DNA of 8,924 nt from an uncultured Oscillospiraceae bacterium (GTDB lineage: Bacteria; Bacillota_A; Clostridia; Oscillospirales; Oscillospiraceae): contig CALWWO010000133.1 of assembly GCA_944385265.1 (NCBI GenBank), positions 1 through 8,924 on the forward strand, in the 5' to 3' direction. The position numbers and the translations under genes are program-made. Under the pieces are notes generated by a model. The model was not told the origin of the DNA. It made no database searches and worked only from the letters and a program-made list of their open reading frames with translations. Shown here piece after piece: positions 3-7,155 of the stretch (the stretch's first letter is position 1; each line of letters begins with the position of its first letter).

Positions 3-1766
3 CGTATACTTATGGAATTTCTCACGGGGCACGGACTTAAGACGGCGCTCGCCGTCAAGCTGTACAGGGTATACGGCGATCTCGCCGTCGAGCTTGTGCG
101 CGAAAACCCGTATCTCATCACTCATGAGCAGTTCGGCGCCGATTTTTATGAGGCAGATGCGCTCGCTTTAAGCCTCGGCTACTCCAGCGACTCGCCGCAG
201 AGGGTAGAAGCAGCCGTGCTTTTTGAGCTGCGTCATAATCTGACGAACGGGCACGCCTTTTTGCCGGCGGACAAGCTCGTCGCGGCTACGTGCCAGCTCA
301 TCGGGATGGAGCAGGAGCCCGTCGAAACGGCGCTGCGCGTCCTTACCGAAAACGGGCACGTCGTGCGCGAGGAGATCGCACAGCGCGACGCGTGCTATCT
401 CGACGGCATACACCGCGCCGAGAACTATACAGCTGAGCGTATTTTGCAAATGGCGTCTATCCCCGTCGGGCAGGCGCGCGGGATCGACAAGACGATAGAT
501 AATATAGAGCGCGAAATGGATATAGAATACGCCGACTTTCAGCGGGAGGCCATACGGCTTGCCGCGGAAAGCCGCATAATGGCGCTGACCGGCGGTCCCG
601 GTACGGGGAAAACCACCGCAGTCCGCGGTATCCTCGCCGTTTTCGACAAGCTCAAGCTCGATACGGCGCTTGCCGCGCCCACGGGCAGGGCTGCAAAGCG
701 GATGACGGAGCTTACGGGACGCGAGGCGCAGACGATACACCGCCTGCTCGGCGCCGGATTTTCGGACGATCATACGGACGTTGTCTTCCAGCACGATGAA
801 AACGACCCGCTCGATATCGACGCGCTCATCGTGGACGAGTCGTCAATGATAGACATACAGCTGATGTACGCGCTTCTGTCGGCGCTGAAGCCGACGTGCA
901 GGCTGATACTTGTCGGGGATGCCGACCAGCTTCCTCCTGTCGGACCGGGCAGCCCGTTTTCCGATATCATCAGAAGCGGCGCCGTGCCGACTGTGCGCCT
1001 TACCGAGATTTTCCGTCAGGCGAGAGAAAGCGGCATAGTCCGCGCGGCGCATGAGATAAATTCGGGAAAGGTGCCTGATTTTTCGGTAAAATACAGTGAT
1101 ATGTTCCTTTTGAACAGAAGCTCGCGTGCCAAAACGGCTGAGACGATAGTTGAGCTCGCCGCCGAAAGACTTCCGAAAAACATGGGCATACAGCCGTCCC
1201 AGATACAGGTGCTGGCTCCGCAGAAAAAATATGAATGCGGCACCTTCAACCTCAATCTGCTGCTTCAGGCGGCAATAAACCCGGCGTCTCCGGAAAAACG
1301 CGAGGTGGACCGCCCCGGCTTTACGTTCCGCGAGGGGGACAGGGTCATGCAGGTACGCAATAACTACGACCTTTTGTGGCGCTCGCAGGATGGGGCGAAC
1401 GCCGGAGCAGGCGTTTTTAACGGCGATATCGGCGTAATAACTGCGATAGACCACACGCATGAGCTTGTCACCGTCGATTTTGAAGATAAGATTGCCGATT
1501 ATACGTTTGAAAACCTGTTTGAGCTCGAGCCGGCGTACGCTATGACAGTCCATAAATCGCAGGGCAGCGAATACCGCGCCGTTATACTGTCCGTCTCAAG
1601 AGGAATGCCGATGCTGATGACGAGAAGCGTCCTCTACACCGCCGTCACAAGGGCGAGGGAGCTGCTTATCATTGTCGGCGACCGCGAAGCCGTTGCGGAT
1701 ATGGTGAACAATGACAGAAAGCAGCGGAGATACTCGGGGCTTAAAACGCGGCTTTATCGCCGATAG
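3..1766 (+). CDS. recD2: RecD2-type ATP-dependent 5'-3' DNA helicase, 5'-truncated by the window edge
   Basis: This is the C-terminal part of a superfamily 1B helicase of the RecD2 class, the stand-alone RecD-like helicase of Firmicutes used in DNA repair and replication-fork processing. The frame stays open to the left edge, and the first visible residues already match the middle of the N-terminal RecD2 region, so the ATG at 12 is internal. The family usually has about 720-750 residues; about 585 are present. Counting from the ATG at 12, I see Walker A GGPGTGKTT at 194-202, motif Ia APTGRAAKRM at 222-231, Walker B VDES at 274-277, motif III GDADQLPP near 302-309, TEIFRQ at 331-336, the UvrD_C_2-type segment TVHKSQGSEY at 512-521 and motif VI YTAVTRAR near 542-549. 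All helicase motifs look intact. The stop codon lies inside the terminal hairpin of the repeat array that follows, so the last residues (LYRR) are encoded by that element. The identification is firm. Confidence 0.95.
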   Translation, partial: RILMEFLTGHGLKTALAVKLYRVYGDLAVELVRENPYLITHEQFGADFYEADALALSLGYSSDSPQRVEAAVLFELRHNLTNGHAFLPADKLVAATCQLIGMEQEPVETALRVLTENGHVVREEIAQRDACYLDGIHRAENYTAERILQMASIPVGQARGIDKTIDNIEREMDIEYADFQREAIRLAAESRIMALTGGPGTGKTTAVRGILAVFDKLKLDTALAAPTGRAAKRMTELTGREAQTIHRLLGAGFSDDHTDVVFQHDENDPLDIDALIVDESSMIDIQLMYALLSALKPTCRLILVGDADQLPPVGPGSPFSDIIRSGAVPTVRLTEIFRQARESGIVRAAHEINSGKVPDFSVKYSDMFLLNRSSRAKTAETIVELAAERLPKNMGIQPSQIQVLAPQKKYECGTFNLNLLLQAAINPASPEKREVDRPGFTFREGDRVMQVRNNYDLLWRSQDGANAGAGVFNGDIGVITAIDHTHELVTVDFEDKIADYTFENLFELEPAYAMTVHKSQGSEYRAVILSVSRGMPMLMTRSVLYTAVTRARELLIIVGDREAVADMVNNDRKQRRYSGLKTRLYRR

Positions 1767-2022
1767 GCGATAGTTTCATCGTGCGGAAGCACGATTCCTT
1801 TAATCGCGTGAAAGCGCGATTTCTTACGCCGCCGGCAAGGCGGTGCCTTGCCGCTGAAAGGCGGCGACCTTTTTGCCCGCAATGCGGGCGGGTTTACCGC
1901 GCCCATGGCGCGGGGATTTGCGACATTTCTTTTGAATATGCAAAAGAAACGTCGCCCAAAGAAAACATAGCAAAGGGGATATTCCCCTTTGCAAACCCCG
2001 AAAGCCGCGTATCAACATACGC
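1753..2022 (-). repeat. Hairpin array A (minus-strand copy of a modular multi-hairpin element)
   Basis: About 270 bp of consecutive inverted repeats directly after, and overlapping, the end of recD2. Hairpins seen (arms, plus coordinates): 1755-1761/1766-1772; 1778-1784/1789-1795; 1802-1808/1815-1821; 1827-1833/1860-1866 enclosing 1834-1841/1845-1852; 1875-1880/1884-1889; 1897-1903/1907-1913; 1920-1924/1951-1955 continuing as 1926-1934/1941-1949; 1970-1979/1983-1992; 2007-2012/2017-2022. Read on the minus strand, the modules occur in the same order as in array B (2444-2599), including a 17-base identical segment (1955-1971 against 2444-2460) and a terminal hairpin matching at 18 of 19 positions. 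An open frame at 1781-2104 crosses it, but its FCPQCGR zinc-ribbon look comes only from a GC palindrome. I read this as a non-coding RNA-like or non-autonomous repeat; the function is unknown. Confidence 0.8.
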
Positions 2023-2122
2023 ATCGGCGAATCTAGCTTGCTGTTTCCCTATTAGTAACCTGACCGTGCTTACCACTCGACGAATGACGCTAAAAACCCG
2101 ATAGATTTTTAAATCACCGCCC

Positions 2123-2320
2123 CCCGCGCATCTAAGCGCGGGCGCAGCGCAGTAGCGATAAAAAGAAACAGGGTAACGTGACCTCCGTGCCGCGGTGTAA
2201 ATCTACGCGCAATGTTATTGCTGTGCAACGCGCTGTCAATGCGCCTATTTTATCTTGCGGGGGACAGTCCATCTTACAAGATGACGTATGCCTGCGATGG
2301 GATAAAACATAGAAAGGGGA
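2123..2320 (-). repeat. Looser hairpin block between arrays A and B, with a third partial core motif
   Basis: This stretch has no gene that I trust. It holds a CCCGCGC/GCGCGGG hairpin (2123-2129/2136-2142, loop of 6), several short GC dyads around 2205-2245, and an ATCTTG/CAAGAT pair (2252-2257/2277-2282) enclosing GGAC/GTCC. Near 2303-2319 the plus strand reads AAAACATAG followed by AAAGGGGA. This is nearly the array A segment at 1963-1979 (AAAACATAGCAAAGGGGA) with one base missing, so the block may be a degenerate or variant copy of the same element, oriented like array A. A long minus-strand frame (2132-2944) runs through it and on into array B and the mreB leader, which argues against coding. 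Between arrays A and this block (2023-2122) I see nothing recognisable. Confidence 0.5.
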
Positions 2321-2326
2321 AGATAC

Positions 2327-2599
2327 AAAATTACAACCCAGCGAAGCGGTTGTGATTTTGAGAGGAGGAGCGATGGAGTGGGTAAGCGTTCGCTTTTTAG
2401 CGGGCGCGCACTTAACGCAATCCGCGACGACGAGGTTTTCCCTGCTATGTTTTCTTTGGGTTACCGTTTCTTTGGGATACGCCAAAGAAATGGTAACAGA
2501 TCCCCGCGCTATAGGCGCGGTAAAGAATGCCCCTTTACAGGGGCATAAAAAGGAGTTGCGCTTTCGCGCAACAAAAGGCGATCGCCTTTCGGCGATAAA
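2327..2599 (+). repeat. Hairpin array B (plus-strand copy of the modular multi-hairpin element)
   Basis: This is a second copy of the array A structure in the opposite orientation. It opens with a 12-bp stem including one T-G wobble (2327-2338/2348-2359). After the 17-base core GCTATGTTTTCTTTGGG (2444-2460) come, in order: a 16-bp stem with one G-U pair (2460-2475/2482-2497, loop GATACG); CCGCGC/GCGCGG (2504-2509/2515-2520); TGCCCCT/AGGGGCA (2528-2534/2539-2545); GTTGCGC/GCGCAAC with TTTC loop (2555-2561/2566-2572); and ATCGCC/GGCGAT with TTTC loop (2581-2586/2591-2596). The last overlaps a perfect 16-bp palindrome at 2574-2589. Array A has the same series on the minus strand with different arm sequences and some added hairpins. 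A 90-codon frame (2352-2624) is open here, but it has no ribosome binding site and translates the palindromes. Confidence 0.8.
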
Positions 2600-6907: not shown

Positions 6908-7111
6908 TTAATCCTCTGTTATCCGAAAAAGCTCGTTCGGCGTACATTCAAGCAGCAGGCACAGCGCCTCAATATTGTCATAGCGGATAGATTTCGTCTC
7001 GTTATTGACCATCTTGCTGAAATTTTGATAACTCATCCCAAGCTGCTTATACAGCCAATATTTCGTTTTCCCCTTCTTCTCCAACAAATGCAGGACATCT
7101 AATTTTATCAT
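6908..7111 (-). CDS. Small XRE/Cro-CI type helix-turn-helix regulator
   Basis: This 67-residue single-domain DNA-binding protein is of the HTH_26-like XRE group. It runs from MIKLDVLHLLEKKGKTKYWLYKQLGMS, through the recognition helix region SYQNFSKMVNNET, to a C-terminal helix ALCLLLECTPNELF that is typical of this family (residues ~48-61). I chose ATG 7111 rather than ATG 7126. GAGGA lies 8-9 nt before 7111, whereas nothing like a Shine-Dalgarno precedes 7126, and that upstream ATG overlaps the inner stem and Shine-Dalgarno of the RBS hairpin. The gene is convergent with gpsA (33 bp between stops) with no clear terminator there. Its leader forms a hairpin with the ribosome binding site bulged out, and the same DNA could be an operator for autoregulation. 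The target is unknown. Confidence 0.85.
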   Translation of the reverse strand: MIKLDVLHLLEKKGKTKYWLYKQLGMSYQNFSKMVNNETKSIRYDNIEALCLLLECTPNELFRITED

Positions 7112-7155
7112 AAGATATTTCCTCATCTCGTATTTTTTAATGAGATAATATCTTA
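7111..7155 (-). promoter_or_regulatory. Hairpin presenting the XRE gene ribosome binding site
   Basis: On the minus strand the leader reads TAAGATATT, ATCTC, a 12-base loop, GAGAT, GAGGA, AATATCTTA, with the last A being the first base of the start codon. The outer 9 bp (7111-7119/7147-7155) and inner 5 bp (7125-7129/7142-7146) are perfect. The only unpaired stretch in the stem is the 5-base bulge (7120-7124), which is the Shine-Dalgarno GAGGA. As RNA this could modulate initiation; as DNA it is a large dyad suited to repressor binding. Both readings are inference. Confidence 0.6.

What the first reader, a model, noticed from the sequence alone, without database searches (positions are those of the whole stretch)
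1753..2599. Two inverted copies of a modular hairpin element with compensatory changes
Arrays A (minus) and B (plus) share module order and a 17/17 identical core (1955-1971, 2444-2460), yet stems differ while pairing is kept. The outer long stem is GTTACC/GGTAAC in B and GCGAC/GTCGC in A. The innermost pair of that stem is G-C in B and T-A in A. The next-but-one hairpin is GCCCCT/AGGGGC in B and GCCCGC/GCGGGC in A. Retained structure with diverged sequence is the signature of selection on folding, either a structured RNA or a non-autonomous mobile element read as RNA or a cruciform. I do not recognise it as a named family.
Basis: partly seen in the sequence, partly recalled or inferred. Interest (0 to 1): 0.8.

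Follow-up and report, generated by a model that had tools for sequence, protein, structure and literature searches.

The report
Hairpin repeats built for triple helices
A repeated non-coding element in this bacterium carries a hairpin plus a matching third strand whose sequences change together across many genomes, as expected if one strand folds into a three-stranded helix, a kind of structure whose role in bacteria is unknown.

Summary
In detail: two inverted copies share a 17/17 core and keep their stems paired while the sequence changes. They form one unit of a dispersed intergenic repeat (24 blastn matches in one related Oscillospiraceae genome). In 23 aligned copies 98.6% of stem cells pair and 7 of 16 pairs change on both sides (6 without the misaligned window A row).

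New: the conserved "core" is a pyrimidine tract that copies the purine arm of the long hairpin in parallel order, the rule for a pyrimidine-motif triple helix. Among 48 lopsided hairpins with such a core, 34 fit this mirror rule perfectly and 1 fits the direct copy (a tie). Of 43 sequences from an unbiased pattern 35 fit mirror, 8 neither, 0 direct; the opposite pattern, not above its control, gave 3 exact, 7 off by one, 0 discriminating direct of 15. An outer stem of free sequence locks the base; linker length rises with stem length. A model of the hairpin matched 26 of 296 relatives.

Closest known: intrastrand triplex repeats of E. coli (TMECO); the pair examined lacks the outer stem. No triplex has been shown physically. 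Function (RNA or DNA; gene-end structure or mobile-element end) is inferred.

The parts
1753..1916 (-). A: array of small G+C-rich hairpins running outward; the last one overlaps the recD2 stop codon (1764-1766)
1920..1955 (-). A: locked hairpin: outer stem GCGAC (1951-1955) / GTCGC (1920-1924), G.T junction 1950/1925, Y arm 1942-1949, R arm 1926-1933, loop 1935-1940
1958..1965 (-). A: third-strand tract TTTTCTTT, parallel copy of R arm AAAAGAAA (8 of 8 mirror, 6 of 8 direct); linker GG 1956-1957
1970..1992 (-). A: G+C hairpin just inside the core (GCAAAGGGG..CCCCTTTGC); similar hairpins stand beside the core in many G001 copies
2321..2433 (+). internal repeated module (hairpin plus TTTTGAGAGGAG), 74-98% identical to several places in G001 over 44-114 bases
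2450..2457 (+). B: third-strand tract (TTTTCTTT; 2451-2457 match R arm AAAGAAA 7 of 7, symmetric so not discriminating); linker GG 2458-2459
2460..2497 (+). B: locked hairpin: outer stem GTTACC 2460-2465 / GGTAAC 2492-2497, G.T junction 2466/2491, Y arm 2467-2473, R arm 2484-2490
2500..2599 (+). B: array of small G+C-rich hairpins running outward

Best explanation
The unit is a dispersed non-coding repeat made of two inverted copies of one module. Shown by comparison: each module has a pyrimidine tract (core), a short, mostly G-led linker, and a hairpin whose upper part is Y arm / R arm and whose lower part is an outer stem of free sequence but kept pairing; the core copies the R arm in parallel, T for A and C for G. 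Inferred: the core lies in the major groove of the Y/R helix as a pyrimidine-motif triple helix (T.A-T, C+.G-C), and the linker crosses the groove of the outer stem, which locks the base. Inferred with less certainty: the strand that folds is the core-forward one, as RNA or as transiently single-stranded DNA, and the structure acts at the 3' borders of genes, where its hairpin side abuts stop codons, as a barrier or end-cap that limits passage of polymerase or nuclease.
For: Stem covariation. Core follows the mirror rule: of 48 lopsided Y-core hairpins mirror scores higher in 46, ties in 1, lower in 1; 34 perfect mirror, 1 perfect direct (the tie); cores permuted among them give 12.8 perfect mirrors on average, at most 19 in 500. 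35 of 43 sequences mirror, 8 neither, 0 direct. Runs of 13-14 triples with two or three C positions: L184, L191, L194. Two-arm viral scan: outer stem of 3 bp or more in 14 of 22 and 4 of 4 mirror-core stretches, 1 of 12 and 0 of 2 direct-core stretches. 35 outer-stem/linker combinations, linker length rises with stem length, rho 0.72; junction G.T 31, A.C 0. 10 of 11 close pairs have cores inward; 29 of 37 stop-adjacent cases have the hairpin side to the stop.
Against: No physical evidence that a triplex forms. C+.G-C needs protonation near neutral pH. Mirror symmetry alone does not tell the strand, nor RNA from DNA. L235 scored lower for mirror under the arm chosen, though higher (8 against 6); L145, L163, L167, G407a and the G603/G700 sequences are off by one or carry a mismatch. 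The opposite-lopsided pattern was not enriched over its reversed control (22 against 18 placements). Some relatives' hits lack a core (L135). Many elements compared are close copies, so the counts are not independent. The gene-end role rests on mechanical ORFs, and for inverted pairs the orientation bias follows from the layout. For the flanking gene's own mRNA the strand is the other one.
Confidence: 0.62

Rival explanations
1. Only a hairpin (RNA or cruciform) is selected; the core is a separate conserved tag, for instance a protein site or promoter piece.
For: The hairpin alone covaries well; copies with symmetric TTTCTTT cores, window B among them, cannot discriminate.
Against: The core tracks the R arm in register across lopsided tracts, in many genomes and within single genomes; a tag would not.
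Confidence: 0.08
2. The triplex acts as DNA: a structure that stalls replication or transcription and makes the locus unstable, as proposed for TMECO in E. coli.
For: Same Y-Y-R order and tracts-inward pair as an E. coli TMECO pair; mosaic and deleted copies; gene ends that differ between two related genomes; Holder 2015 (abstract, passages, sections 15, 16, 18).
Against: The G.T against A.C bias for one strand and the short linkers are easier to explain for a selected single strand, RNA in particular.
Confidence: 0.33
3. The locked hairpins are the ends of a non-autonomous transposable element recognised as folded single strands by a transposase in trans.
For: Dispersed units; in G029 four units 85-92% identical over about 400-500 bp with hairpins outward; copies at contig ends in G250 and G118; presence/absence at gpsA, nfo and mreB ends.
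Against: Y1 transposase family PF01797 absent from 5 of 6 carrier genomes searched, and the one gene found has no element within its 2.2-kb locus by string search and reading; solo modules abut stop codons in G066. Other transposase families and target duplications were not searched.
Confidence: 0.25
4. The arrays are ordinary tandem intrinsic terminators.
For: Read from the flanking gene the spacers are T-rich: on the outward strand A makes up 165 of 275 bases in the 5 nt after 58 small hairpins (segments chosen by hand); in G001 an array stands beside nfo where the window has a plain hairpin with T run.
Against: The long hairpin is followed by a purine tract on the gene strand, not by a U run, and this says nothing of the mirror core.
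Confidence: 0.15

Closest known systems
Intrastrand triplex repeats of bacteria, TMECO / ITxF (Holder et al. 2015, PMC4666352: abstract, passages and sections 15, 16, 18 read)
   Same: Three tracts on one strand (Y-Y-R on one strand, Y-R-R on the other), intergenic, many copies, inverted pairs; in an E. coli pair fetched here (mrcB-hrpB gap, two strains) the third-strand tracts face inward as in the window.
   Different: TMECO is G+C-rich and, by the paper, extraordinarily uniform; at the locus examined the 3-nt second loop (TTA or CCG) does not pair upstream of the hairpin, so there is no outer stem. Here tracts are T/C-rich and highly variable with the three strands changing together, and an outer stem of 4-10 bp sits inside the first loop.
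REP/BIME/REPIN with RAYT
   Same: Palindromic intergenic repeats in alternating orientation (start of the abstract of PMC2817692 seen in the listing; inverted pairs as REPINs recalled).
   Different: No mirror third strand that I know of (recalled); RAYT family absent in 5 of 6 carriers.
ENE / MALAT1 RNA triple helices (starts of the abstracts of PMC12501189 and PMC11411715 seen in the listing; details recalled)
   Same: Pyrimidine third strand parallel to a purine tract, U.A-U and C+.G-C triples.
   Different: There U tracts form an internal loop that clamps an A-rich 3' tail; here the third strand lies 5' of an outer stem.

Membership tests
Bacterial intrastrand triplex repeats (ITxF/TMECO) | three tracts on one strand with a third strand in the Hoogsteen order | tested here: met
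   window A 8 of 8 mirror against 6 direct; mirror preference over the whole set
Bacterial intrastrand triplex repeats (ITxF/TMECO) | loops of 1-6 nt between tracts (search rule of Holder 2015) | tested here: not met
   between third strand and Y arm the window has 8 nt (A) and 9 nt (B) because the outer stem strand lies there; families with a 4-bp outer stem and 1-nt linker have 5 nt and would meet it
Bacterial intrastrand triplex repeats (ITxF/TMECO) | intergenic, multi-copy, inverted pairs | tested here: met
Bacterial intrastrand triplex repeats (ITxF/TMECO) | triplex formed in vitro or in vivo | not testable with these tools
   needs CD, NMR or footprinting
REPIN/RAYT | a RAYT (Y1 transposase) gene in the genome | tested here: not met
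   PF01797 in 1 of 6 carriers, absent in G001; not testable for the window's own genome, which is not held
Rfam RNA families | match at gathering score | tested here: not met
   window: four matches up to E 1, all below gathering; 20 loci: only tRNA and 6S, elsewhere in them
ENE/MALAT1 | U-rich internal loop clamping an A-rich tail (recalled) | tested here: not met
   the third strand is outside the outer stem
Intrinsic terminator | hairpin directly followed by a U run on the transcribed strand | tested here: not met
   in the window the long hairpin is followed outward by AGATC or AAATC and inward by a CC/CCC-purine tract; small hairpins in the arrays have T-rich spacers read inward
MITE | terminal inverted repeats | tested here: inconclusive
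   19-base ends 95% complementary, but unit ends dissolve into variable arrays
MITE | target-site duplication | not tested
   flanks were only looked at by eye

The most novel reading that the evidence does not exclude
A widespread bacterial class of locked RNA triple helices: a 5' pyrimidine strand docks in the major groove of a hairpin through a linker tuned to the length of a freely evolving outer stem, so that three strands covary. It would be a bacterial counterpart of the triplex caps of eukaryotic transposon and long non-coding RNAs, placed at gene ends.
Probability: 0.4. Interest if true: 0.87.

Novelty: new variant of a known kind. Interest (0 to 1): 0.76.

Why it matters
Potential triplex sequences in bacteria have been listed before, but whether evolution keeps the third strand stayed open. 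Here the third strand changes together with the purine arm across many genomes, and within single genomes, which makes that question testable by simple compensatory mutations. If it is RNA, it would add a new triple-helix architecture and a possible new way to mark or protect transcript ends; if DNA, it would give a defined family for studying triplex-linked instability.

Tried and rejected
Own-genome search: no genome is held for the window. Similarity searches with the window element gave nothing in plasmids (B only) or phages. Of 29 genome stretches with the 17-mer, only those of one assembly (CALXCR01, here G001) carry the hairpin by inspection; the others, and both viral stretches, look like chance. 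blastn over 99 relatives found only G001 itself. The ORF 2352-2624 that runs through B was rejected as a gene: G001 copies with TTTCTTTGACATA hold a TGA in that frame (by eye). Direct (Watson-Crick) copying of the arm by the core was tested as the alternative to the mirror rule and lost. In one search, of 74 lopsided cases 67 scored better for mirror and 7 for direct; five of the 7 (L132 twice, L134, L137, L139) came from my linker limit of 6 nt, and with 8 nt L132, L134 and L137 (L139 has the same core end and was dropped as a duplicate) score mirror; one is L145 (off by one) and one the non-core strand of L130. The opposite-lopsided pattern was no more frequent than its reversed control (22 against 18); of 15 distinct sequences 3 are exact mirror, 1 symmetric, 7 off by one, 4 neither, 0 discriminating direct. 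Of the 39 viral stretches most look like A+T-rich chance: 8 had an outer stem of 4 bp or more in the strict count, of which L220 and L228 also have a mirror tail; L197 and L212 fit by eye, L233; L195, L201, L203, L204 and L229 have a stem but no matching tail. RAYT link in G250: string search and reading of the gene's 2.2-kb locus show no element. Literature: the literal sequence (no paper) and related motifs gave nothing nearer than Holder 2015 in the listings; this covers only the held open-access library.
Full report
Observation. The 17-base core GCTATGTTTTCTTTGGG is at 1955-1971 (minus) and 2444-2460 (plus) with no mismatch, 0.02 expected. The stems named in the finding are in the sequence, and both arrays fold far better than shuffles (z -7.00 and -6.93). 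The unit lies between recD2 (ends 1766) and an mreB-like gene (starts 3002), named by NCBIfam. The last hairpin of the A array overlaps the recD2 stop codon.

Copies elsewhere. An exact scan with the core gave 29 genome stretches; by inspection those that carry the hairpin are all from one assembly, an uncultured Oscillospiraceae bacterium (CALXCR01), called G001 here. G001 has 24 blastn matches to window 2440-2540 and encodes an MreB 92% identical to that of the window. A gapped pattern of core plus hairpin matches 20 places in G001 and none when read backwards. None of the other 98 relatives gave a blastn match.

Covariation of the stems. 23 copies (2 window, 21 G001; 18 distinct) were aligned. 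With the 16-bp structure 98.6% of 280 cells pair and 7 pairs change on both sides; the covariation score is 0.400, against 0.131 for shuffles (0 of 500) and 0.066 at most when slid. Two weaker measures of that call: both-side pairs reached by 3 of 500 shuffles, further pair types by 64 of 500. MAFFT placed the window A row one column off; without it 98.5% of cells pair and 6 of 16 pairs change on both sides, one of them as A-U 8, U-A 6, G-C 3. The sequences are related, so cells are not independent events. A model from this alignment matched 26 of 296 genomes, G001 included, at E 0.01 (18 candidates scored per genome, E-values rough, some weak hits such as L135 lack a core). In these genomes the outer stem is quite different (GGTGGA, GGTCCTGG, GTAAC, GGTTTCA on the 3' side) yet paired.

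The third strand. In lopsided tracts the core proved to be the mirror of the Y arm, that is, a parallel copy of the R arm. Examples: L144 CTCTTTTCTCTTT beside AAGAAAAGAGAAA (12 of 13); L142 TTTTTTCTTT beside AAAAAAGAAA; L194 TTTCCTTTCTCTT beside AAAGGAAAGAGAA (13 of 13, direct 9); L191 and L184 14 of 14, direct 8. This is the order needed by a pyrimidine-motif triplex. I then tested it without using the core for selection. First, a pattern fixing only a lopsided hairpin followed by any nine purines: 19 of 394 genomes of the order match, 127 placements (overlaps counted) against 2 for the reversed pattern. Of the 43 sequences, distinct within their genome, in the listed rows 35 follow the mirror rule, 8 neither, 0 direct; G410a is symmetric and G095 repetitive, so 33 are clean, and a few sequences recur in two genomes. 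The rule holds within one genome where tract lengths differ (G066, G310). Second, 123 lopsided hairpins in the fetched loci were chosen by hairpin and outer stem alone; 48 have a Y core; mirror scores higher in 46, ties in 1 and is lower in 1 (L235, where the arm taken was one base long; 8 against 6 for mirror); 34 are perfect mirrors, 1 a perfect direct match (the tie); cores permuted among the 48 give 12.8 on average and at most 19 in 500. Third, the opposite lopsidedness in 391 genomes of the class gave 8 genomes and was not above control (22 against 18 placements); its 15 distinct sequences have 3 exact mirrors, 1 symmetric, 7 off by one towards mirror, 4 neither, 0 discriminating direct. 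Fourth, a two-arm scan of viral contigs: mirror cores in 22 and 4 stretches, with an outer stem of 3 bp or more in 14 and 4; direct cores in 12 and 2, with 1 and 0, the 1 being a symmetric tract. In these lists several contigs are near duplicates on both arms, L197, L228 and L233 stand in both mirror lists, and L075, which by eye has a GTTAC outer stem in another register, was counted as having none.

The lock. 35 distinct outer-stem and linker combinations were seen. Outer stem length (4-10) and linker length (0-8 nt) rise together, rho 0.72 (not corrected for kinship). The linker begins with G in 27 of 35. At the junction the core-forward strand has C-G 40, G.T 31, A-T 4, G-C 4, T-A 2 and never A.C, though the scanner allowed it (overlapping loci not removed). 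So the strand kept foldable is the one with order Y-Y-R. My inference is that the linker crosses the deep groove of the outer stem as in H-type pseudoknots; short linkers over 4-7 bp suit an A-form (RNA) helix. This geometry is recalled, not modelled.

Layout. Of 11 pairs closer than 700 nt found by the scanner 10 have cores inward and hairpins outward, like A and B. Of 37 cases in which an element lies next to a stop codon of an ORF of 100 aa or more, 29 have the hairpin side to the stop, 15 of these within 20 nt. These ORFs are mechanical, some elements count twice, and for pairs the bias is built in, but 6 of 8 fetched modules of G066, which are solo, show it too. In G029 four units share about 400-500 bp at 85-92% in both orientations. 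At four orthologous gene 3' ends, that of recD2 carries a unit in both genomes, while those of gpsA, nfo and mreB carry one only in G001. At recD2 in G001 the right-hand core and long stem are missing while small hairpins remain, and two places in G001 have hairpins with mismatched arms and arrays on both sides; I read these as deletions between like tracts.

Beyond Clostridia. By eye a viral contig (L075), a Variovorax paradoxus plasmid (outer stem with one G.T) and a Burkholderia cepacia plasmid (between lpdA and aceF) carry the same arrangement, as do several viral contigs, one with a 17-triple tract (L233). Only the two plasmid hosts are named.

What it may do. Shown: selection for a hairpin with a paired outer stem and for a parallel third strand. 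Inferred: a triple helix on the core-forward strand. Less sure: an end-cap or barrier at gene borders, a DNA structure linked to instability, or ends of a mobile element; these overlap, and I put each at about one in four to one in three. RAYT-type transposases are absent from 5 of 6 carriers searched.

Known relatives. Holder et al. 2015 (PMC4666352; abstract, passages and sections 15, 16 and 18 read) describe bacterial intrastrand triplex repeats, found with loops of 1-6 nt, and the G+C-rich TMECO in inverted pairs; pyrimidine classes were 6% and 4% of their hits. At one E. coli place, fetched from two strains, the third-strand tracts of a TMECO pair face inward, as in the window, and there is no outer stem. 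Their search could hold the 4-bp families of this class (5-nt loop) but not the window's A and B (8 and 9 nt). So this is a new variant of that kind. No Rfam family covers it at the gathering score (window and 20 loci), and the literature searches found no description (open-access library only, listings seen except for Holder 2015).

Noticed in passing
window 2321-2433: A separate module (hairpin AATTACAACC..GGTTGTGATT followed by TTTTGAGAGGAG) is 74-98% identical to several places in G001 and looks like a second dispersed repeat nested in these units.
   Followed up: partly
L065 241-314 and L058 4055-4128: Hairpins with arms of two different outer-stem types and arrays on both sides, core lost: probable deletion products between direct TTTCTTT tracts.
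   Followed up: partly
L162 1762-1967: A 6S RNA match (minus strand) lies close to a model match (1595-1659) in G175.
   Followed up: no
L233 651-701: Viral contig with a 17-triple tract by eye (core TTTTTCTTTTTTTCTTT against AAAAAGAAAAAAAGAAA), the longest seen.
   Followed up: no
L174 1432-1941: G250 holds one Y1-type transposase gene and its element copies sit at contig ends, so this genome may have a recently active form; no element was seen next to the gene.
   Followed up: partly
L235 1501-1547: A Burkholderia cepacia plasmid carries a module between lpdA and aceF; the PLSDB table lists no feature there.
   Followed up: partly
window 6908-7126: Small minus-strand ORF that looks like a helix-turn-helix protein (by eye) without an NCBIfam match, between gpsA and nfo; G001 has a repeat unit after gpsA instead.
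   Followed up: no
window 1822-1922: Weak Rfam match of DUF3577 RNA over array A on the minus strand, E 0.18, below its cut-off; taken as chance.
   Followed up: no
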